Assembly (NCBI GenBank): GCA_002104985.1
Contig: MCGO01000106.1
Location: 62,001 to 126,000, forward strand
DNA: 64,000 nucleotides
Direction: 5' to 3'
From: Rhizoclosmatium globosum
Taxonomy: Eukaryota > Chytridiomycota > Chytridiomycetes > Chytridiales > Chytriomycetaceae
Shown here: piece by piece, positions 51,097 to 63,611 of the stretch
How the letters are laid out: every line of letters starts with the position of its first letter
Position numbering within the stretch: the first letter of the stretch is position 1
The notes under the pieces: generated by a model
What the model saw: only the letters and a program-made list of their open reading frames with translations
Database searches by the model: none
Told to the model about the DNA's origin: nothing
Program-made: the position numbers and the translations under genes

Positions 51097-51972
51097 TTAG
51101 TGGGATGCGACTTCTTTCTTCTTTGCTTCCACAGCGGCATCAACGTCCTTCATAAATACATCATGCTCCTTTTGAATCTTGTCTTCAATCTTTTTAACTT
51201 CATCCGTTGACTTGATCTTGAGTTTCTTGAGATCAACACGTGCAGTTGCACGTAAATCTCTGATCTGAGTACGATGCTTTTCGGCAATTTGAGAAATAGA
51301 TTTGATGATAGTTTCGCGATGTTCTGCGCTCATTCTAGCCATACTGTTAGTTTTCGTTTTTCGAACACGTTTGTGACAGCTTACTTTGGAACTGTGACTT
51401 TCAGTGTTGATCCGTCAACTTTCTGAGGACTCAGGCCAAGCTTTGCATCACGAATAGACTTCTCAGCGAATGGAGTATACTATTCCACAGCCACTAATAA
51501 ATGACTGCTCAACGTTCAACCCAAAAACTCACGTCTTCATCGTTCAACACAACCATCAAAGTATGAGCATCCTTTGTAGAAATCTGAGCAATCTCAGATA
51601 GAGCAACAGCACCCTTTCCCTTCTTCTCCATCACAACCTGCACCTTATCCAAAAGGGCTGGGTTCGCCCTTCCCAAAGTGATGCTGGTGCTCAAGTTGTC
51701 CTTCAAACGATCAATACAGCTTCGCATCTTTAGCTGCATCTTGGACATGTCGAATTCAGGTGGGGAACATCGTTATCATCGTCCTTTTGCTGTTTGCCGC
51801 CTTTGGACTTTGACGCAGGTTCCTTCTTTTTGGCGGCATAGAAGCGGATTGATGGAGCGGTATTGATTGAGAGAAGTGGTGGACGGGATACGACGAAGTG
51901 TTGAAGTGGCTGAGACCGCAATGACAGCTGATGCGTGAATTGAACACACCGAAATGACAATGATTGGAACAT
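51097..51972 (-). CDS. RRF1: Mitochondrial ribosome recycling factor
   Basis: N-terminus is a basic, Arg/Ser/Leu-rich targeting peptide (FQSLSFRCVQFTHQLSLRSQ). The body has MSKMQLKMRSCIDRLKDNLS, LGRANPALLDKVQVVMEKKG, then YTPFAEKSIRDAKLGLSPQK and VDGSTLKVTVP, and the final helices RMSAEHRETIIKSISQIAEK and so on, all in the order of RRF. Introns near 51527-51488 and 51387-51347. Near 51765 one missing C (CCCC should be CCCCC) breaks the frame between the linker and PPEFDMSK. RRF splits the ribosome after termination, here in mitochondria. Confidence 0.92.
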
Positions 51973-52240: not shown

Positions 52241-53313
52241 ATGGCACGCAAAGCTATTAACGTCGACGATCTATTGAAAGACTTGGACATGAGTCTGAAC
52301 GAGCTCAACGAGGGTGCTGATGGTGAGTAGGATCACACTGGGCTGCATGGGGCACCTTGTTAATTGATCGCTTGCAGCCGCAGCCGCCGTCGCAGCGCCG
52401 ACAAAGAGTGGATTGCATGATGCCCTCAACTCTTCCTCTCACGGAGAGGATGATGCATATGGTGACTTTTTGGATTCTTATGGTGAGGAGCAAGTGGAAG
52501 CTGTGAGTCAAAGTGCCTGAACCTTCTTGGATAAGCACCATTCTGACACTTGACTTTCTTTAGCCTGTGATCCCTACTATTCCAGTCCCTTCTGTCGTAG
52601 CGCCACCTGTTCAATACAGACAACCCCAACCCCTACCAGCCACACCTGTTTCATATCCACAGTACCCTCCACCCACAAGAAAACCTTTACCCTCCAGACC
52701 ACCATCTGCATCCACTAATGCGCCTGGTATGGTTCAAAGAATGAACTCAAACCCCGGTGTCAATGGACAGATGAACGGATTCGGTATGGGAGCAGGACCT
52801 TCCGACAACCTCAGACGTGAGTTTATTGCCATTACACCACGTGTATCCAGTCAAGGCGGTGCTGAAATGGAACGCCGCGGGTCAACTTCCACAACCATGA
52901 CCTCGATGACGTCAGCATCAGCCAATTCACCTGAAGTGTCAGACGAAGTCCGGTTGCTTCGTGAACAGCTGGAACGGGCAAAGATTGAATTGCTGGAGCT
53001 TGCACAACAAAAGGCTTCCGTTCCAACATCCGTGCAATCGATGCCAGCTAGAAAAGAATACGAAGAATTCCAGGGCGTTAACAAACCAATGGCTGCGCCG
53101 AAATCAAAGGGAGACGCTTCATCCATCACTTCTGGAAAGAGTGGGAAGAGTGCCAAGAGCACAAGTAGTGGCTGGTTTGGAATGTCGCGTTCCAAGTCAA
53201 ACTCCAATGTTAAAGCAGACGGAAGTGCGAAACCAAAGAAGAAGGAGAAGGAGAAGGACCTTCCACTGTATTTGACCACCTCCATGACCCTTGGAGCAGG
53301 AGGTCGATTCTAA
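52241..53313 (+). CDS. LD-motif array gene 1 (LD-like helix, coiled coil, RSKS segment, GGRF tail)
   Basis: Three exons: 52241-52322, 52378-52502, 52564-53313; 318 residues. Exon 1 encodes only the N-terminal helix INVDDLLKDLDMSLNELNEG. Exon 2 adds an acidic motif, AYGDFLDSYGEEQ. Exon 3 gives a proline-rich linker, a short coiled coil (VRLLREQLERAKIELLELAQ), EFQGVNKPM, a Ser/Lys stretch (ASSITSGKSGKSAKS), GWFGMSRSKSNSN, a Lys run and the end LPLYLTTSMTLGAGGRF. No signal peptide, membrane helix or known enzyme domain. First member of a seven-gene tandem family; every later member on this strand shares some of these modules. I infer an adaptor protein. Confidence 0.78.
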
Positions 53314-53490
53314 CTTTACATAGACAATTTCATTCGAGTTTCTTTCCTTTTCTACGCAATTAAAGAAGGTTTCCTTTTTTGACTTTGATCAGAATCCACC
53401 AAATAGAATTTTCACCGTTGGTCACGTGACAGGGAGACACCCTCTTGCATCTTTGACCAGTCAATTTGTGATTCTGAAACCATCCCTTCA

Positions 53491-55344
53491 ATGGCGAGCA
53501 ACTTGGACAATCTCCTCGCTGATCTTGAGAACGAGTACGAAGGTAATCAGCTTCATCTATCGTGGGGCCAAGAGAATGGGTCTGACACTTGTGACAGGTG
53601 CTGCTGTTACCAGCTCTGTGAAGCGAAACACCACCACCAGATCAGTCAAGGTCGCAATTGAAGATTTGGAGTCGGATCTGTATGACTTCCTCGATAATTA
53701 CGGCGACGAGGAAGAAGAGGAAGTGCCAGCGGGGGATGCCCAATTTACTGTCGACACCTCCAAGTTCCTCTCAATTCAAGAGCCCCAGGTACCTTCATCC
53801 GTGTCAACACAACCATCAAATGAACCTGTCGCTGCTGGAGCCGCAAAGAAGTTGGAGGATTTGGATTTTAAGTTTGAGGGAGAGGATGACGTTGTGACAG
53901 CGGTAGTGGAGCAATCACAACCTGCCCCTGTTGCTGAATCTATTGAACCATTGCAGAATGAGCAGCAGAGAGAGGTGGAACAAGTCGCTCAAGCTGACAA
54001 CACTGATAACGATGCCGACCACTTCCCACCAGTCAAAAACCTAATTAATCACTTCACTGCCATTGCTGTTGCTCAGGATAAGCGGGTGGAGGAAGCGCCT
54101 GTTCCGTCTTCTGTTGCTGCCAGCATTAACGAGGAAGTCTTTGTCGATGCCGTACCTGTAATTGAGGAAGTTGTATCTGCTCCTGTTCCCGTCGTCGCCC
54201 CAGTTGTCGCTCCAGTGGAGGAAGTTCCTGTTGCTGTTGAGGAAGTCGTTGAGGAAGTTGCGGTTGAGCAAAAGGTGGAGTACGATTTCATTCATGCGGC
54301 AGAAGGTGCCGCTGTCCAGGGCGAAGAGTTGTCTGTCGTCTCTGGAAACGGGCTTGAACGGGCGGAATCTAAGTATGTCATTCATCAGGAGGTTCCTCAA
54401 CCTGTTGCTGTTGTCGGAACTGTGAAGTACGAGGAGCAGGCCTCTGTCGTTGTTGATGCAAAGTCTGCTGTTGTTGAGAGACAGGAGGTGATTGAAGAGC
54501 CTGTTGCGCCACTCGTGCAACCGCAAATTTCTGAGCGAGGATCTTCAACAAAGGAGCGATCAATGTCCATCTATTCGGAGTCCATTCAGTATATCTCGAA
54601 AAGAGACTCGGTTTTGGATAGTGATATCCAAGTCCAAATTATTCGTCTGCGTGGACAAATCGACCGTACTCGTATCGTATGTAGTTCTTTTCAGTTAATA
54701 TCTGATGGCTAACTGCTTGTTTCCAGCTTATCAACGAACAACTCCGTCTGAGAAATATGCCACCTCTCGAACCAGGTCAATACTCTCTGCCAGCCATTCA
54801 ACCATCAAAACGAGGATCTATTATCTCAACAGTCTCAAACGCTGTTTATTCAGCTATCACTAGCGTGACTGGACCTGCTTCTCCAACCACCCCAAGCCCA
54901 GCCACTCCAGGCCCTACTGCCCAAGACCTTGAAATTCAGCGTATGCGTGAAGAACTCGAACGAACCAAGCGTGAAATTGCTGACAAGCAGAAGCAGACCA
55001 TTACCCCCTACACACCTGCTCCCCCACCAGCAAACGTTGCGCGACCATTACCACCCCAAGAGCAATCCGATTTCCCAGGCGTTGACAAGGTGATTGAATA
55101 CAAGAAACCAAGCAAGAACAACGACAGTGCCTCTATCACCTCTGGAAAGAGTAACAAGAGCAACACCGGTTCTAGTTGGGGTCTGTTCCGTTCCAAGAGC
55201 ACAAAGTCGATGAAGGAGGCTGCTGATGCAAACGACAAGCCTGTGAAGGAGCGTAAGAAGAGCATTAAGCCTAACGCTGACAAACCACCACCACTCTACA
55301 TGACTTCTCCACACATGATGATGGGTGGTGGTGGTCGTTTCTAG
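53491..55344 (+). CDS. LD-motif array gene 2 (best LD match, GGRF tail)
   Basis: Three exons: 53491-53542, 53598-54676, 54727-55344; 582 residues. Exon 1 encodes MASNLDNLLADLENEYE; LDNLLADL fits the paxillin LD consensus (LDxLLxxL). The same acidic motif as gene 1 follows (LYDFLDNYGDEEEEEVP), then a long Val/Glu-rich region, QVQIIRLRGQIDRTRI|LINEQLRLRNMPPLEPGQ, a coiled coil (LEIQRMREELERTKREIADK), FPGVDKVIEYKKPS, SASITSGKSNKS, WGLFRSKSTKSMKE and the end PLYMTSPHMMMGGGGRF. The largest member of the array. No known enzyme domain. Confidence 0.8.
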
Positions 55345-55470
55345 ACGACTTGTATTACAGTACAGTAGATGAAATAAAGTTTATGTTCTTTTTCGATTAA
55401 ATTTTGAAACCATTTGCAGCAATTTCGAATAATTTTTGACAACCAAAACAGCACGCGCCAAATTTCAGAT

Positions 55471-56235
55471 ATGCCTGGGGAAGCACAACAAGCGGCAGCC
55501 GTGGATAGAGCCCTGTTAATGAAGTCGAGGACGTTTTCTGAGGAGTCTGATGCGAATCGTCTGGGATCTGAGACTGATTCCGTGCTGGATAACGACACTC
55601 AAGTACAGATCATTCGGCTGCGTGGCCAAATAGAGCGTACTCGCATCGTAAGTGACTGTTCAAAATTCTTAGTCGAAACTTCTGACTTCAACTCGATCTA
55701 TGTCTAGTTGATCAATGAACAGCTGCGATTGCGAAATATGCAACCGTTGGAGCCAGGTCAGACTACGTTGCCAGCCCCATCCAAGAGAACATCAATTATT
55801 TCTGCAATAACAAGTGCGGTTGGAAGCGCTATTTCAACCGTGACTGGAGTGACTTCTACTCCTGGCACTGTCAATGGTTCAGCACCATCTTCTCTGTCAA
55901 AAGAACAAGAGATTAAGCAGTTACAAGAGGAACTCAATCGTACCAGAAAAGAAATCACTGGAATTCCACAGACCCCAACTCTCTTCACACTTCCATCTGC
56001 TCAGAAGCAAGAGTTTCCTGGAGTGGACAAGGTTATCGAATACCAGCACAAGAAGACCGAGAACAGTGATAATGCGTCTATATCATCGGGAAAAAGTAAT
56101 AAGAGTGGGTTTGGATTGTTTCGCTCCAAGAGCACCAAGTCTCTGAAAGAAGGTGATATTGCTTCATCAAAGACAGTGAAGCCAGTGAGAGAGCGCAAGA
56201 AGAGTATTGTGTCAAAGTCTCCATGGGCGGCTTGA
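55471..56235 (+). CDS. LD-motif array gene 3 (partial duplicate of gene 2, no LD motif)
   Basis: Two exons: 55471-55647 and 55708-56235; 234 residues. It aligns with the second half of gene 2: SVLDNDTQVQIIRLRGQIER, with the intron at exactly the same codon (RTRI|LINEQ), LRLRNMQPLEPGQTTLPA, the coiled coil IKQLQEELNRTRKEITG, FPGVDKVIEYQHKK, NASISSGKSNKSGFGLFRSK. It lacks both the N-terminal LD-like exon and the C-terminal GGRF tail, ending in SIVSKSPWAA. It looks like a segmental duplicate that acquired its own start. Confidence 0.78.
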
Positions 56236-56346
56236 GTTTTATAAGTTTGAATATAGATTTGTTGTGCTTTTGTGATATCCTTTCGTGGAGATCCAAAAAT
56301 CAATTTGGGATCGTTTGACATTGAGACCCATTGCACAGTGCACACC

Positions 56347-57700
56347 ATGAGCAACACGATCAATGCGCTGCTGAATGAGCTGGATGAGTTCTTAATTGAT
56401 TCACCAGGTAAGGCGAGGTATTGCAGCCTTTACTTAAAGCGGGTACTCAATTGAGCCATGAGCAGAGGCAGCCCCGCCAGCCACTTCTTTTAAAGCCGAA
56501 GCCGCCGACGACGCCTACGACATTCTCTCGGCTTATTCCGAAGACACAGCCACCGAATCCGATGCACCGGAACCCGCCGCGGACGCCCGGCTCAGCAGTT
56601 CAAGTGCCTCCATTCCTCTGCCGCCATCGCCCTCGATTCCTCGCCCAACAATTAAACCACTTTTGGCCGAAAAGATGCGCCAGGATACGATCCAGGAACA
56701 GCCTCTTTCACAGCCATCGAATCGGAATGTGAGTTGTGATCACATATCAATCGCACTTTGTTTATTAAACACACACACACAATCCCCTTATTATCATGCA
56801 GAGACTTCCAAAGGGTATGAACATGCCGCCAAGTCCTGTGGCAATCAGGTCGAGCATGCTGCAGCAATCTATGCCTCCCCCAATCTACCTCAGCAGAACA
56901 ATGTCTTCCAATGGCGCCCCTGCTCCAAACCAAACATTTAACATGGCTCCTGTCAATTCTGGAGCACCTTATGTTCGATCTGGCAGGGCCAGTTTCGACA
57001 ACAATTTGCCAACTCCCAAACGAGGCTCATTTATGCCACCTCCCTCTGTTTACGAAAATGCTCAACAGCAGCAATTTGCGCGACCAATGTCTCGCACATC
57101 CGCGCAATCTTACCCTGATACAATCCAAGAGAGAGAAGAACTGGATTCTCTGCATCACCATTTCCACCAACAACAACAACTGCAACTACAACAACAAATG
57201 GAGCAGCAGTACGAAAATGAAGAAATCATGGCTCTTCGTGCAGAACTCGAGAAAACAAAGATGGTGAATAACACAATTTTCCTCAAGGGATATACAGTTG
57301 CTGACATCATTTGATTGCAGGAACTTAGCCTTCGTGCAGAATTAGAGCAAGCAAAGAAGGTATTGAGTCTTGACTGATTTGATTTTTTTAAAATATCAAT
57401 GCTAAATTCCGTCTCCAGGAAATAAGTGATCGTATCAGGGAAAATGAATTATTGTTACTGAAAGCTCAAGCTAAAGCAGCTGATTTGAAGAGCGACACCA
57501 CATCCTTAAAGTCAAAAACATCGTCAATTGGAACAGAGCAATCGAACTCGTCAAAGAAGGGGCTAGGCTGGCTTGGTCGTTCGAAAAGTACGGGATCAGC
57601 TAAACCAGCAAAGAAGAAGGCTGAAAAAGATGAAAGTAATGTACCGTTGTTCCTTGCGAACCCTTACATGATGCAAATGGGTGCTGGTGGTCGTTTTTAA
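56347..57700 (+). CDS. LD-motif array gene 4 (LD-like helix, polyQ, coiled coil, GGRF tail)
   Basis: Five exons: 56347-56407, 56466-56728, 56802-57263, 57321-57359, 57419-57700; 368 residues. Exon 1: MSNTINALLNELDEFLIDSP. Exon 2 has the acidic motif in weaker form (DAYDILSAYSEDTATE). Exon 3 is Pro/Ser-rich with a glutamine run. The coiled coil is spread over three exons (IMALRAELEKTKM|ELSLRAELEQAKK|EISDRIRENE), the middle one being just 39 bases, a repeated heptad unit. The end has GLGWLGRSKSTGS, a Lys run and VPLFLANPYMMQMGAGGRF. A CA microsatellite lies in the second intron (56769). Confidence 0.8.
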
Positions 57701-57844
57701 AGGAGTTGGTCAAGGGATGGATGTCATCACACTGGATGATATATGGATAAACTGTTGAAGCGTTATGTACACAAACCTTTCAATAAAAGCAACAGTTTCT
57801 TAGTCAAACAGAGAACAAAAAGCATCAGAAAATTCTTCCTCAAA

Positions 57845-59004
57845 ATGCCTGCAATCGATATGGACAGTCTCCTGCGGGAGTTGGATGCTTCTCTTGATGA
57901 ATGCACTACAGGAAAAGGTTAGTTGCATAGTTTCGCTGCTTCAAGCTTCTTGTTTTGGCGAACCATGGCACTACCTTCAAAGCCGCCGCCACTTACGATA
58001 TAAACCGATTCGCTGACTCTCTTCCTCATAAACATAGCGCCCCTGCCTCAAGTAACTGTTGCGCATCTCCTCAGCTTGAACACGGCCACTGTTTCAGGAT
58101 TGATGGATGTGATATCACCGGCAGACAAACCAACAATGGCATGGAATCTGCGGTTCCTGGTCCTTACTATGGGTGCTATCTTTATGTTTGAAAGCAATGG
58201 GCCGGAGGAGATGCCTGTAGATGTTGTGCGATTGAATGTGGGAACGGAAGTGGCGTCAACTGGTGTTCCGGGTGAACCCTTAGCTTTCACTATTGCAAAC
58301 AATGAAACCCCTGACGAGAATTGGATGTATGTATCTACGACCTTAGATCTTTATTGGATTACTTGGAGGTGACAACTTAACTAATCATTGCTCACAAATC
58401 AAGTTTGAGAGCCAAAACCAAGACATCAAAAGATACATGGATAGATATGATTGCTCGTTTTTCTGTTACTGGCCCAGATGAGCAAGATTACGATGAAGGT
58501 GCAGATGAGATTACTCTCGAAAGAACTCTTTCTTCAAGCAGGGTAACTTCAGATTACATTGCTTCTTATGATATATTAATCCTGTGTCTTATTCAGATTG
58601 CAAACTTCCAAGGAGGTCTCCATATTCCAAACAGGCAAAACAGTTTGAACGCTGCACCCCAGCCTATCTTCATCAACAGGTCTCTTGCGCAACCATACAG
58701 CTCGTCTCCAAGCAGCTATAGTTTCGATCGCCGCGACTCTGAAGCCCACTCTCACGTTTCAAGCGAATTCGACAATTACTACGGCAATAGAGTATCCGAC
58801 AGCCCATCGTTTGGTAGTTTCCCCAAACAACAAAGTGTTGGGATCCCTGGCGGTGGTATCTTTGGGTCATTGGGAGACACAGAGCCTGACTTATCTCGCC
58901 TTGGGCGATCCAAGTCCAAGACGTCGTCGACTACTTCAGGGGATGCTGTGAACAGAAAGAAGAATACGAAGGCACAGATTTCCAAGTCGTTTATCCAGTT
59001 TTAA
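57845..59004 (+). CDS. LD-motif array gene 5 (LD-like helix plus PH-like domain)
   Basis: Four exons: 57845-57917, 58038-58326, 58404-58542, 58597-59004; 302 residues. Exon 1: AIDMDSLLRELDASLDECTT. Exons 2-3 form a PH-like domain: TMAWNLRFLVLTMGAIFMFE as strands 1-3, a middle of beta strands, and LRAKTKTSKDTWIDMIARFS as the closing strand and helix with its invariant Trp. Exon 4 is Ser/Pro-rich with LGRSKSKTSSTTSG near the end and no GGRF tail. PH domains commonly bind phosphoinositides or small G proteins, so membrane recruitment is inferred. Confidence 0.75.
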
Positions 59005-59223
59005 ATGATTTTGAAGTCCAGTCAAGCCCTGCTATCAATGTCAATGGCATTCAATCTCATCTTCCTTGTACCTTTTGTCTGTTACTCTACTTACTCCCTG
59101 GGCATGCAATCCCTAATGTGAATAAGCCTCTCTTTCTATCCGTCTTGCTCTTTCCTTCCTTCCATCGCTTAATGAAAAATAAATCTGGTTCTAAATCTCC
59201 TCGAAGCCCAGAAACTTGTTTAA

Positions 59224-60570
59224 ATGGCAACGAAAGTTGACTCCTTGCTCATGGCACTTCGCAGCTCATTCGAGGAGTTTATGGACCATGAAGCTGGTGT
59301 GTAGTGTACCCAATTCCCCACTTTGTTAGTCAATTAACTCATTCGCTTGCTTCAGATCCCGAGATAACGCCAGAAGTCAAGCAACTGCTGGAAGCATACA
59401 AGCAGAAACATACCGCGAAAGTAGCGGATCTGCTGAGTGAGTCTAATCGAGAGTACCATATGATCTTGGCTGATTTTGCCTTCCTCAACAGACAAGACTG
59501 ATGCAACATCTGGACAGCTGTACATTATCCCCGAAGCTCGATACGAAGATACTGCCAAACTTCAGTCGCTGCCTTGGGCTCCGAGGTTCATTGTGATGTG
59601 TCAAGGCAGCTTGTTCCAATTTGCGGACCCAAAACCAACGAATGAAGCTATAGACTACTTTGACCTGTCGGAAAAGACATTTGTGCTGCCGAAGCTGCAG
59701 CGAATCAATGTACCACTGGCGTTTGAGATCGTATCAACTTTGCCGACTGGGGAAACCAAGAGCTGGTTGTGAGTGGCTCCTTGTCTCCTTATGTTCAACT
59801 AGCTTTATTAATCGATGTTGTTGAATAGGTTACGTGCAAACAATCTTGCGACAAAGAATATGTGGGTGGAGCTTATCAACAAGGCAATTGCCGAAGTTTC
59901 ATTTGAGTGCAGGCGGCTCCAAAGCTCAAAAAGATCAACAGCAGCACGGAATTCGCACTGGAGACGTATTTAAAAGTCTGGTGGCGGGAAAGAATCTTCA
60001 GTGTATTCCTTCGAAACCTTGAAATCAAACGCCAATCTATCCCCTTTGGAACCAACAGACCCAGCTCCACCCGTCCCCAAGATTCCTTGGGAAAGATTTC
60101 ATGGAATAGAGCAGCCCTTTTCAGCTCCGGTTTTGTCCGAGAATCCACCTTAGATTACGCCTCCCCAGCCGAAATGGAAATCCAGCTTGCAACAAAACTC
60201 AACGACTCAAAGCGAGTCCGTGGGAAAAAATCCACACTCATGCGGAGAAATTCAGATTCCTACAGCGAGCACCGTCGAAGCTCGAGTTTAATGGACGAGG
60301 ATGAGCATTGGAAGTCTATTGGTGTTCCACCACGTGAATGCAGATGCAGTTTGCGATGGACGAGGCGATGGCACGGGCGTTGGTTGAAAAGAAAATGAAG
60401 GAACAGAGGAGACAGGCTGTTATTGTGGAAGCTGAGAAAGTGATCATGAGAGTGTTTTGTCTGGGGGAGTTGAATATACGGGTCGTTCAATGTCGGAACT
60501 GCCTCGAAGACCAAGTACTGCGCAAAGTACTACGTTTTCCAGGTTGAAGGGATGGTTTGGATTCAAGTAA
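59224..60570 (+). CDS. LD-motif array gene 6 (LD-like helix plus PH-like domain; frame uncertain at 3' end)
   Basis: Exons 59224-59296, 59356-59436, 59492-59768, then from 59829. Exon 1: ATKVDSLLMALRSSFEEFMD. The PH-like domain reads LPWAPRFIVMCQGSLFQFAD up to KSWLLRANNLATKNMWVELI. After about 59930 three frames alternate (ETYLKVWWRE; PTDPAPPVPKIPWERF; DYASPAEMEIQLATKLNDSK; MQFAMDEAMARALVEKKMKE), ending in STTFSRLKGWFGFK at 60570. These pieces are typical of the family (the GWFG motif recurs), so missing bases or unrecognised introns are likely rather than separate genes. Confidence 0.65.
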
Positions 60571-60845
60571 ACAATTTAAATAGAGTCATTTAGCATATTA
60601 AGAATGAAGGGTGGTTTTATGTTGATGGGTTGTTGCGCGTGGTTCATGTCAGGAACTGTCAGTGATAAGATGCAGAGCAATGCTTGGCGAGTGCCTCCCT
60701 CCATCAACTCACCAAATTGGAAAATTTGAGGCTGTGAGGCTCTGTTCGACTTGTAACCCTTCAACAAAAAACTTCTCAAACGATACTACATTACTTGGTT
60801 CAATATGTCGCGCGTACTTACCCGCCAGAATACCGAAGTTGAAAC
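60571..60845. other. Intergenic gap between array genes 6 and 7
   Basis: 275 bases with no recognised gene. It is the longest gap in the array and may hold the promoter or a missing first exon of gene 7, since that gene lacks the usual LD-like first exon. Confidence 0.35.
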
Positions 60846-61868
60846 ATGATGAACAACCTACAAATTGATGGTGAGTTTATGGTTTTGGGTGGACTTCTTG
60901 TTCTGACGCCGAATTCAGCAGACAGACGGTCTAGGCAAGGCCGCAGCCTTAGCAAACGAAGACCCTCAATAACAAACCATGAAGACCACGGTAACGTAAC
61001 AATTGGTGCATTGTTAGGTAAGAGTGATAGATATCTACCACCCAATCTAATACACTATCAACAGAGCAACCCAGTGCTCTCAGTGGACAACTTGATCTTT
61101 ATGTTCCTCCTACTCGCCGGGGCGAAGAAGGTCTTCTCGTTGAGCGGTTCTTTATCTTAGCGAATCGCACTCTGTACATGTTTGTCACGCGATCAACTTT
61201 CAGCCAACCTCTCGCAAGCTTAGACCTTACGCCGAATTCCTACATTGTCGCTGATATTAAAGGGGCAACTGAGTTGGCCATGGAACTGGTTGGAGAAATC
61301 GGGCTGGTCAATTCAAATCTTGGATGTAAGTCCACCTCTCTTGCTATGCCAAAGTAAATAATAATTCTCTGAAACCAGCTTATGCGCAAGAAACATGGCA
61401 ACAAAGAGTCTCTGGGTTGACATGATCAACCATTCCATCACAGCCAGTGTGAACGAAGTTGCAAAGTTCTCATCTGCGCGCAGCGTTCCACGCATTAACA
61501 CATATGCAATGAGTCGAACACAGTCTTATGGTGGATCGGACTCGTATGTAACATCCCCAGTCTACGCCGATAAACGCGGTGAAGCAAACACGAGACTATC
61601 TCAGCGACAGATCCAAGAAGCACAAGCTCTGGATTTATTCCAACAAGGCCTTGAGGTCCAATACAATAGTCACAGACGTGAATCAGAGTCTTCATTGAAC
61701 CAAGTGGCAACTCCGACAAGTGATCACAGTCGGTCCGTCGAAGACAACATCTTTTTTGAAGCGTCAAGAAAGATGAATAGCGAATACTCGACATCGTCGA
61801 CGGAGTCTGCTGAGCTTAAAAAGACAGTGAAGCGCCGTGTTAAGACGGCTATTATGGGAATTTTGTAA
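60846..61868 (+). CDS. LD-motif array gene 7 (PH-like domain, no clear LD motif)
   Basis: Exon 1 (MMNNLQID, 60846-60870) is cut by a GTGAGT donor at the same phase as in the other genes but lacks the LxxLL pattern. Exon 2 is basic (RSRQGRSLSKRRPSITN). The PH-like domain follows: EGLLVERFFILANRTLYMFV up to KSWILCARNMATKSLWVDMI; a missing A near 61316 is needed to read KSW, exactly where gene 6 has KSWLLRAN. The tail is Ser-rich with AELKKTVKRRVKTAIMGIL at the end. About 280 residues. Confidence 0.7.
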
Positions 61869-62100: not shown

Positions 62101-62655
62101 ATGGCCGCCATTCCTGCAGTCTGTCTACCCTTCAACTGCGCGGGCACTTGCTTCTCCTGTTTCCGCAATGGAGCGTGCTTTAACTCTGAACAGCATTGCA
62201 ACTTTGATTGTTCTGGAACGTGTGTCCCAACTGCCCTCGATATCAGCAGTACCTGTGCATCACAATACCCTGGCTCCACGGCTTGTCAGTTGGCATGCAG
62301 CAAGTGCATAGCTCCATCAGCGAATGAAATCGCGACGAGCCGGTTCTTGTCTTGCGACGAGACGGCTGGTACGGCTATCTGTAGCCGCGGAATGATGGGA
62401 AGTATGCTTTCAAACACGACGATAGTTTTGAAGGATTTGAATCCTGATGGGTTGCCTGTGATTGTCCAGACAACTACAACTACTTCAAGCTCTATCGAAT
62501 TCGTTACTATAACCAAAGCAAGCCAGGGGGCAGCAAGTGCACAAGCAACAGCGATGAGTCCAGTTGCCGTTCTTCTTACTACCACTAAGAGTGCTGCTGT
62601 TGGCTGTAGTATTAGGGTATTGAGTGTAATGTTTGTTTGCCTTCTCGTTCTATAA
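62101..62655 (+). CDS. Cys-rich protein with Thr/Ser stretch and hydrophobic C-terminus
   Basis: 184 residues from the ATG at 62101. The N-terminal 100 residues contain about 17 Cys in pairs (CAGTCFSCFRNGACFNSEQHC, shortened here; CSGTCVPT; CQLACSKC), followed by a Thr/Ser-rich part (VIVQTTTTTSSSIEF) and a hydrophobic end (SIRVLSVMFVCLLVL) like a GPI signal. I see no classical signal peptide at the start, so an upstream exon may be missing. Likely surface protein; family not recognised. Confidence 0.6.
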   Translation: MAAIPAVCLPFNCAGTCFSCFRNGACFNSEQHCNFDCSGTCVPTALDISSTCASQYPGSTACQLACSKCIAPSANEIATSRFLSCDETAGTAICSRGMMGSMLSNTTIVLKDLNPDGLPVIVQTTTTTSSSIEFVTITKASQGAASAQATAMSPVAVLLTTTKSAAVGCSIRVLSVMFVCLLVL

Positions 62656-62765: not shown

Positions 62766-63611
62766 ATGGCTTCAGTTTCATTGGCAACCCGCACCTTGAC
62801 TGCAGCCTCACTGAGCCTGTCCACTGCATTAGTCAGTCCTACACCAACTTCCGTGGCGGAAATCAAACTGCCACAGGTTGGGGACTATGTGCTGACGTCG
62901 GTATCCTGCAACTTGACTTCAGTTCCATCTTTCGACATAACATGTTTATCAAAGTTGCAGCTTGTTCAAGATGGATCCTTTCTGTCTGTCTTGTATCCTG
63001 TCTTTGGCTCGTCAGCCAACCTGACTCAAATTGGAGAGAGCAACACAACTACAACAACCACTACAACAACTGCGACCTCATCTCAATCGGCAACCCAAGC
63101 AATATCATCAACTATCTTACCAATCAATCAAATCCAATGTAGCACGCAACCCGAAGATTCAATGACTCGTTTTGATCGGGTGTTTGGTTCAGGCTCTGTA
63201 TATGATGTGACAGAGGAGGTTGGCACACTGACCTCATTCAGTCTCATCGCAACTCTGCAATCGGATATTTGTCAATTCTATTATGCATTTGATGGCGGAC
63301 TCGGTGCCGTTTGTGGCGGAGAACGAGCTGCTACAGTCTGTAATAAGGAGGCGGGATTAGAATGCCGCCAAGGTGTCTGTGTACCTTCGTATATCGAAAC
63401 TGTCAGGACAACGATTTTGCCGAATACTACTTCTGCCACTCGAGTTTCTACTTCAGATTATACCAATACAACATCCACCTTGGGTACGAGATCCGCTGCG
63501 CCAACTGCAACAGGAAGTAAGATTGACTCTAATAATGAAACGACCAGAAGAGTGGCATCGACGCAGGCATCTGTCCCCGATTCTACCTCAACCTCCTCCT
63601 CCCGCACGTAA
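62766..63611 (+). CDS. Thr/Ser-rich putative cell-surface protein
   Basis: Single open frame of 281 residues. Residues 45-80 and 120-215 look like a folded, Cys-bearing part (SVSCNLTSVPSFDITCLSKL; SDICQFYYAFDGGLGAVCGG; CNKEAGLECRQGVCVPSY); between and after it are Thr/Ser runs (NTTTTTTTTTATSSQS) with Asn-x-Thr sites, as in O-glycosylated wall proteins. The N-terminus is Ser/Thr/Ala-rich, only weakly signal-like. No family recognised. It follows the Cys-rich gene on the same strand. Confidence 0.6.
   Translation: MASVSLATRTLTAASLSLSTALVSPTPTSVAEIKLPQVGDYVLTSVSCNLTSVPSFDITCLSKLQLVQDGSFLSVLYPVFGSSANLTQIGESNTTTTTTTTTATSSQSATQAISSTILPINQIQCSTQPEDSMTRFDRVFGSGSVYDVTEEVGTLTSFSLIATLQSDICQFYYAFDGGLGAVCGGERAATVCNKEAGLECRQGVCVPSYIETVRTTILPNTTSATRVSTSDYTNTTSTLGTRSAAPTATGSKIDSNNETTRRVASTQASVPDSTSTSSSRT

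What the first reader, a model, noticed from the sequence alone, without database searches (positions are those of the whole stretch)
52241..61868. Seven-gene tandem array with LD-like N-terminal helices: a possible new adaptor family
Five of seven consecutive plus-strand genes begin with a 52-82-base exon coding almost nothing but a short amphipathic helix: VDDLLKDLDMSL, LDNLLADLENEY, INALLNELDEFL, MDSLLRELDASL, VDSLLMALRSSF. The second fits LDxLLxxL, the paxillin LD consensus that binds focal-adhesion partners; the others are close variants. The rest of each protein mixes coiled coil, Ser/Lys-rich RSKS segment, GGRF tail or PH-like domain. Seen: the shared motifs, splice phase and order. Known: LD motifs and PH domains recruit proteins to cytoskeleton and membranes. 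Inferred: a chytrid-specific adaptor set, perhaps for zoospore crawling, encystment or rhizoid growth. I know of no description of such a family.
Basis: partly seen in the sequence, partly recalled or inferred. Interest (0 to 1): 0.88.

Follow-up and report, generated by a model that had tools for sequence, protein, structure and literature searches.

The report
Chytrid adaptor cluster with LD-type helices
A row of seven chytrid-fungus genes encodes uncharacterised proteins of two types, five of which begin with a short predicted helix resembling animal paxillin's docking helix and are therefore predicted to plug into the vinculin and talin-like proteins that the same genome encodes, although no binding has been tested.

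Summary
Seven tandem plus-strand genes lie at 52241-61868. Five open with an exon of 52-82 bases that encodes an LD-type helix, and all five exons end in phase 1. There are two types: g1-g4 (coiled coil, predicted disorder, GGRF tail in three) and g5-g7 (PH or PH-like domain). Twelve of 13 homologous database proteins from four genera keep the helix at residues 5-9; three of the 13 are this genome's own second copy. No Pfam family reached its cut-off in 8 type A proteins scanned. The genome encodes a vinculin with tail and a talin-like head plus I/LWEQ domain. Most likely these are LIM-less LD adaptors, working like paxillin (g1, g2, g4) or a minimal RIAM (g5, g6). I had no binding, transcript or localisation evidence. 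Nuclear export is the main named rival: 4 of 5 helices also fit export-signal spacing. 'Zoospore crawling' is contradicted: R. globosum zoospores do not crawl (PMC8887899). g6 and g7 have broken frames downstream.

The parts
52241..53313 (+). g1, type A: exons 52241-52322 (LD helix VDDLLKDL), 52378-52502 (DAYGDFLDSYG motif), 52564-53313 (Pro-rich, coiled coil, SGKS/RSKS, GGRF tail)
   Evidence: model; P0001 (93% identity over 99%) and relatives P0002-P0007
52241..52322 (+). g1 LD-type exon 1, phase 1
   Evidence: (0 mismatches between the two assembly copies)
53491..55344 (+). g2, type A: exons 53491-53542 (LDNLLADL), 53598-54676, 54727-55344
   Evidence: P0010 of Rhizoclosmatium sp. JEL0117 has the same length, 582 aa
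53491..53542 (+). g2 LD-type exon 1, exact LDxLLxxL
   Evidence: 1 mismatch between copies
55471..56235 (+). g3, type A paralogue of g2 without LD exon, without the DxYD motif and without GGRF tail: exons 55471-55647, 55708-56235
   Evidence: 55% identity to g2 over 227 aa
56347..57700 (+). g4, type A: exons 56347-56407 (INALLNEL), 56466-56728, 56802-57263, 57321-57359, 57419-57700
   Evidence: P0012 98% identity over 100%
56347..56407 (+). g4 LD-type exon 1 (inverse class, E+6 L+7)
   Evidence: class described in PMC7703752
57845..59004 (+). g5, type B: exons 57845-57917 (MDSLLREL), 58038-58326, 58404-58542, 58597-59004; PH domain and RSKS tail
   Evidence: P0008 97% identity over 100%, with PF00169 over the cut-off in P0008
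57845..57917 (+). g5 LD-type exon 1
   Evidence: helix resembles that of g1 (11 of 21 residues, E 0.004 in an eight-sequence comparison)
59224..60570 (+). g6, type B: exons 59224-59296 (VDSLLMAL), 59356-59436, 59492-59768, 59829 onward; PH domain; frame broken from about 59970 in this assembly, so the end is approximate
   Evidence: PF00169 over the cut-off; g5-g6 29% over 160 aa including the helix
59224..59296 (+). g6 LD-type exon 1
   Evidence: (2-base indel in the second copy); no annotated orthologue found for g6
60846..61868 (+). g7, PH-like fragment related to g6, no LD exon; exons about 60846-60870, 60919-61017, 61065-61325, 61379-61868; reading frame not continuous as modelled
   Evidence: similar to g6 in two pieces (E 1e-4 and 0.002); no Pfam hit for the piece tried

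Best explanation
The cluster encodes two types of multi-part protein, five of which start with a conserved, predicted LD-type helix that likely docks onto the vinculin tail (less certainly onto talin) encoded by the same genome, making them predicted adaptors between membrane and actin cytoskeleton. Shown: the gene array, the two types, the conserved helix sequence at the very N terminus, and the presence of vinculin and talin-like genes. Predicted: the splicing, the helical state (moderate model confidence in one orthologue), and disorder around it. Inferred: type A proteins (g1, g2, g4) multimerise through their coiled coil and cluster the partners that the helix binds, as paxillin does with its own LD motifs; type B proteins (g5, g6) use the PH domain to bring the partner to the membrane, as RIAM does; the Ser/Lys-rich RSKS segment is a phospho-regulated or membrane-binding region. 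The likeliest setting is thallus and rhizoid actin, not crawling zoospores.
For: Helix in 5 of 7 window genes and 12 of 13 homologous proteins, always at residues 5-9. The three leucines of LLxxL are invariant in both nine-row type A alignments, whose mean column identity is 36%. AlphaFold2 of P0002 gives a helix at 8-24 (blocks of ten: 64, 71, 51) and a long, coiled-coil-like helix at 283-324 (blocks up to 94), while 328 of 441 residues are below 50, as expected of a docking motif in a disordered protein. The LD exons vary less than the introns behind them. A similar helix sits on coiled-coil and on PH proteins, with the same intron phase. The genome encodes vinculin including the tail and talin-like F2 and F3 head pieces with an I/LWEQ domain. 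Literature: LD motifs bind vinculin, talin, FAK, parvin and others; non-paxillin LD motifs occur in unicellular eukaryotes; LD signalling has paxillin and vinculin as its core (passages of PMC7703752). Talin, vinculin and paxillin are transcribed in the anaerobic fungus Orpinomyces, in which integrin, FAK and Src homologues were not found (passages of PMC5042518). RIAM combines an acidic talin-binding segment, a coiled coil and RA-PH (passages of PMC8813058).
Against: No binding, localisation or expression data. The 22-residue g2 start found no PDB chain at E <= 10, so resemblance to paxillin LD1 is a pattern match, not a scored homology. Only 1 of 5 helices is an exact LDxLLxxL, and the four Chytriomyces proteins have MSMLLKDL without the L-D pair. 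Export-signal spacing fits 4 of 5 window helices and all 4 orthologue helices tested. The stretch between talin head and I/LWEQ is short and no Talin_middle match was found (uninformative because no control rang), so an R7-R8-like LD receptor is not shown. FAT, CCM3 and paxillin-LD-region families gave no match (equally uninformative). The helix of g6 has no acidic residue at +6.
Confidence: 0.42

Rival explanations
1. The helices are leucine-rich nuclear export signals read by exportin 1 (CRM1), keeping otherwise disordered coiled-coil and PH proteins out of the nucleus.
For: 4 of 5 window helices and 4 of 4 orthologue helices tested match at least one of ten export-signal spacing classes (classes recalled). 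Export signals are a proposed source of new LD motifs, and some LD motifs are reported to export (PMC7703752).
Against: g2, the most paxillin-like helix, fits none of the ten classes. The invariant core is LLxxL rather than one export spacing. The PH domain of g5 and g6 suggests membrane rather than nuclear cycling (inference). The spacing classes are loose.
Confidence: 0.17
2. The helix docks onto a partner outside the LD system (a lineage-specific helical-bundle protein, or the same protein family itself), for example to assemble a polarity or secretion scaffold; the LD resemblance is convergent.
For: The pattern is short and degenerate. Type A proteins have a second conserved motif, DxYDxLxxY (11 of 11 type A homologues and g1, g2 and g4, with one inserted residue in g1 and P0001), for which I know no LD counterpart. 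No scored similarity to solved LD peptides.
Against: Extreme N-terminal position in disordered proteins, mostly acidic flanks, and the vinculin tail and talin-like gene in the same genome fit an LD system without further assumptions.
Confidence: 0.33
3. The short first exons are gene-model artefacts and the proteins start elsewhere.
For: P0011, an annotated R. globosum g2 model on the error-rich second copy, starts without the helix. g6 and g7 have broken frames. No transcript data were available.
Against: 12 of 13 homologous annotated proteins in four genera start with the helix. JEL0117 models P0008, P0010 and P0012 have the same start and nearly the same length. All five exons end in phase 1 with GT donors, and they vary less than their introns. 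For g6 there is no annotated relative to compare.
Confidence: 0.04

Closest known systems
Paxillin family (paxillin, leupaxin, Hic-5)
   Same: LD-type docking helix near the N terminus of a predicted disordered region; g2 NLDNLLADLE fits, but for its first residue, the form DLDXLLXDLE quoted for paxillin LD1 (PMC7703752).
   Different: One LD-type helix per protein instead of four or five; no LIM domain in the proteins scanned; coiled coil, RSKS and GGRF tail, or a PH domain, instead.
MRL family (RIAM, lamellipodin)
   Same: g5 and g6 put an N-terminal amphipathic helix in front of a PH domain, as RIAM puts its talin-binding segment in front of RA-PH (PMC8813058).
   Different: No RA domain in P0008 or in the g6 piece; no coiled coil or poly-proline tail established for type B.
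Non-paxillin LD proteins predicted by LDMF in unicellular eukaryotes
   Same: LD-type motifs in proteins that are not paxillin homologues (PMC7703752).
   Different: Most of those were species-specific (39 of 53 in the passage read); this is a tandem family in which an LD-type exon occurs on two different protein types and in four genera (type A).

Membership tests
Paxillin | C-terminal LIM domains | tested here: not met
   Pfam scans of P0001, P0002, P0003, P0005, P0007, P0008, P0010, P0012, g3, the g6 piece and a g7 piece show none; g1, g2, g4 and g5 themselves were scanned only through these relatives
Paxillin | Four or five N-terminal LD motifs | tested here: not met
   One motif at residues 5-9 per helix-bearing protein; the only further loose match is VSGLMDVI at residues 43-50 of g5, P0008 and P0009, just before the PH match
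LD-motif proteins (any) | Helical LDxLLxxL-type motif in a disordered setting | tested here: met
   By sequence: g2 exact; g1, g5 and g6 with V or M for the first L; g4 inverse class. By model: helix 8-24 at moderate confidence in a mostly low-confidence chain, P0002 only
LD-motif proteins (any) | Binding to an LD-binding domain | not testable with these tools
   No complex prediction or binding data; candidate receptors exist in the genome
MRL (RIAM/lamellipodin) | RA-PH tandem | tested here: not met
   PH only in P0008 and the g6 piece
MRL (RIAM/lamellipodin) | N-terminal talin-binding helix | not testable with these tools
   Helix sequence present, binding untested
PH-domain proteins | PF00169 over the curated cut-off | tested here: met
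   P0008 27.5 bits, g6 piece 26.2 bits, cut-off 25.1; g7 piece no match
CRM1 export cargo | Hydrophobic spacing of a known export class | tested here: inconclusive
   4 of 5 window helices and 4 of 4 orthologue helices fit at least one recalled class, g2 none

The most novel reading that the evidence does not exclude
In this chytrid lineage the LD docking helix has been set free from paxillin's LIM body and turned into a stand-alone phase-1 exon carried by a tandem gene family, on coiled-coil proteins and on PH proteins, giving an integrin-free adhesion system its own paxillin-like and RIAM-like adaptors in one locus.
Probability: 0.3. Interest if true: 0.72.

Novelty: new variant of a known kind. 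Interest (0 to 1): 0.5.

Why it matters
In the anaerobic zoosporic fungus Orpinomyces, talin, vinculin and paxillin are kept while integrin and FAK homologues were not found (PMC5042518), and what these scaffolds do in fungi is open. A small adaptor family in one locus, with a defined docking helix and a defined candidate receptor (the vinculin tail), gives a concrete handle on that question, and may show how a short motif is moved between protein types by its exon.

Tried and rejected
PDB search with the g2 start alone: nothing at E <= 10. PDB search with P0008: no informative match (best unrelated or E 0.99). AlphaFold2 of P0008 from two sequences: mean pLDDT 33, not used; no fold search was run. 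Viral-contig scan with the type A profile: no relative. Families for FAT, Talin_middle, CCM3, paxillin LD region and integrin beta: no match in the genome, but no control rang, so absence is not shown. LIM loci as possible canonical paxillin: no LD pattern in L062, L063, L064, L066 and L067, and one match in a 172-codon frame of L065 that was not examined further. These six loci cover 10 of the 18 LIM matches, on 5 of 11 contigs, some with little flank; the other matches were not read, so a canonical LD-bearing paxillin is not excluded. Literature: 'chytrid' with 'LD motif' gave one paper, on homing endonucleases (listing); 'Chytriomycetaceae' with 'talin' gave none. PMC8812817 is not held. 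PMC12686525 and PMC10846614 were seen in passages and not used for a claim.
Full report
What is there. The window lies in a 56.9 Mb genome of 420 contigs. Three annotated homologues, P0001, P0009 and P0011, are named Rhizoclosmatium globosum and sit on a contig of 645,309 bases, the length of contig C68 of this genome, so the organism is almost certainly R. globosum (inference). Seven plus-strand genes follow one another at 52241-61868. With GT-AG introns, g1 to g5 read through completely as 318, 582, 234, 368 and 302 residues. g6 reads through its PH region and then loses frame; g7 loses frame in its last exon as modelled.

The locus in a second copy. C68 and C79 carry the region in identical form over the 9,901 bases compared; the window copy (contig C9) is 96.4% identical to C79 over 14 kb. 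The second copy has many one-base indels inside coding exons, which I read as sequencing errors in a less well polished haplotype; a decayed haplotype is not excluded. The broken ends of g6 and g7 in the window copy may be of the same kind; this is not shown. In the five LD exons the copies differ at 1 of 341 bases (plus one 2-base indel in g6); in the introns right behind them at 12 of 339.

Two types. Type A: g1, g2, g3 and g4. g2 and g3 are 55% identical over 227 aa; g1 is linked to g2, g3 and g4, and g2 to g4, by their C-terminal halves (E 3e-15 to 5e-5 in an eight-sequence comparison). Order in g1, g2 and g4: LD-type helix, acidic DxYDxLxxY motif (with one inserted residue in g1), variable region, coiled coil, Ser/Lys segment with RSKS, GGRF tail. 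g3 lacks the first two and the tail. Type B: g5, g6 and g7. g5 and g6 are 29% identical over 160 aa including the helix; PH reaches the Pfam cut-off in the g5 orthologue P0008 and in the g6 piece. Between the types, the helix of g1 resembles that of g5 (11 of 21 residues, E 0.004). With the shared phase-1 junction in 5 of 5 genes, this suggests that one exon is common to both types, by descent or by shuffling (inference; the similarity is short).

Chance. 12 of 1,194 ATG-started stubs in the window fit the loose pattern, 6 of them the five starts and an inner ATG of g5.

Relatives. Three protein searches over 5.8 billion sequences gave 7, 2 and 5 hits, 13 distinct proteins, from Rhizoclosmatium, Siphonaria, Obelidium and Chytriomyces. 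Of the 13, four are from C. hyalinus, three (P0001, P0009, P0011) from this genome's second copy, and three (P0001, P0004, P0013) are marked partial. 12 of 13 have the helix at residues 5-9; the miss is P0011, a model on the error-rich copy. The DxYDxLxxY motif is in 11 of 11 type A homologues; RSKS is in 10 of 13; the GRF tail is in 5 of 11 type A homologues, and the Chytriomyces proteins lack it, so the tail is less conserved than the helix. No Pfam family reached its cut-off in the 8 type A proteins scanned. The search finds only relatives sharing exact words, so wider occurrence is not excluded.

Structure. For P0002 with nine sequences, AlphaFold2 predicts a helix at 8-24 (blocks 64, 71, 51) and one at 283-324 (up to 94); 328 of 441 residues are below 50. 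The PH-type model failed (mean pLDDT 33).

Possible receptors. The genome holds a vinculin gene on C334 (two matches, E 1e-25 and 2e-12). Its tail piece matches PF01044 positions 676-836 and solved vinculins over their tail (best E 1.5e-11). I/LWEQ matches 6 stretches on 5 contigs: C24 is the strongest and was not analysed (Sla2-like, from recall). On C292 the minus strand carries, in order, a piece whose best PDB matches are talin FERM heads (E 4.8e-5), a talin F3-like piece (E 2e-7; PF02174), and the I/LWEQ matches about 1.4 kb further on; C1, C293 and C184 hold similar copies. No known LD-binding rod bundle was identified.

How it most likely works. [quoted passage not shown] A disordered protein with one such helix and a coiled coil would gain avidity by multimerising (inference); one with a PH domain would carry the receptor to phosphoinositides, as RIAM does for talin (passages of PMC8813058). 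In Orpinomyces, which has talin, vinculin and paxillin but in which integrin and FAK were not found, these genes are transcribed at all stages and are higher in germinating than in swimming spores (passages of PMC5042518). In R. globosum, actin-related transcripts rise in immature thalli and zoospores do not crawl (passages of PMC8887899), so thallus or rhizoid attachment and cortical actin are the likelier setting. All steps from binding onward are inferred.

What speaks against it. The motif is short; only g2 is canonical; the g2 start found no PDB match; export-signal spacing fits 4 of 5. I therefore give the LD-docking mechanism 0.42, another helical partner 0.33, and export 0.17.

Membership. 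It is not paxillin (no LIM in the proteins scanned, one LD-type motif only) and not MRL (no RA in the two proteins scanned). It may work like either. It meets the sequence side of 'LD-motif protein'; binding is untested. PMC7703752 already reports non-paxillin LD motifs in unicellular eukaryotes, most of them species-specific (39 of 53), so the class is known, and the family with its shared exon is the new part. Searches for print on it; nothing on such a family was seen in the listings, most of which were capped.

Noticed in passing
G000:C292:1-9900 (L055), minus strand; similar copies on C1, C293, C184: A talin-like gene with FERM F2 and F3 pieces and an I/LWEQ domain only about 1.4 kb apart, in at least four assembly copies.
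   Followed up: partly
G000:C334:564157-566969, minus strand (L060, L061, L068): Vinculin homologue including the tail domain.
   Followed up: partly
L055 6557-7405, minus strand: An open frame with Ras-association (RA) matches (PF00788, two stretches) upstream of the talin-like gene on the same strand; whether it belongs to that gene or to a neighbour is open.
   Followed up: no
C68/C79 copies of the locus (L044-L046): The second assembly copy has many one-base indels in coding exons, and the public gene models P0009 and P0011 on it are shortened, P0011 lacking the first exon.
   Followed up: partly
window 51097-51772, minus strand: Ribosome recycling factor gene (PF01765 in two open frames) bounding the array upstream.
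   Followed up: yes
window 62102-62655 and 62767-63611, plus strand: Two open frames without Pfam match downstream of the array; the first is cysteine-rich with a hydrophobic C terminus, and both may be secreted or surface proteins.
   Followed up: no
residues 36-63 of type A proteins (g1 window 52378-52502; g2 53598 onward; g4 56466 onward): Second conserved motif DxYDxLxxY, in 11 of 11 type A homologues; no known counterpart was found or searched for beyond Pfam.
   Followed up: partly
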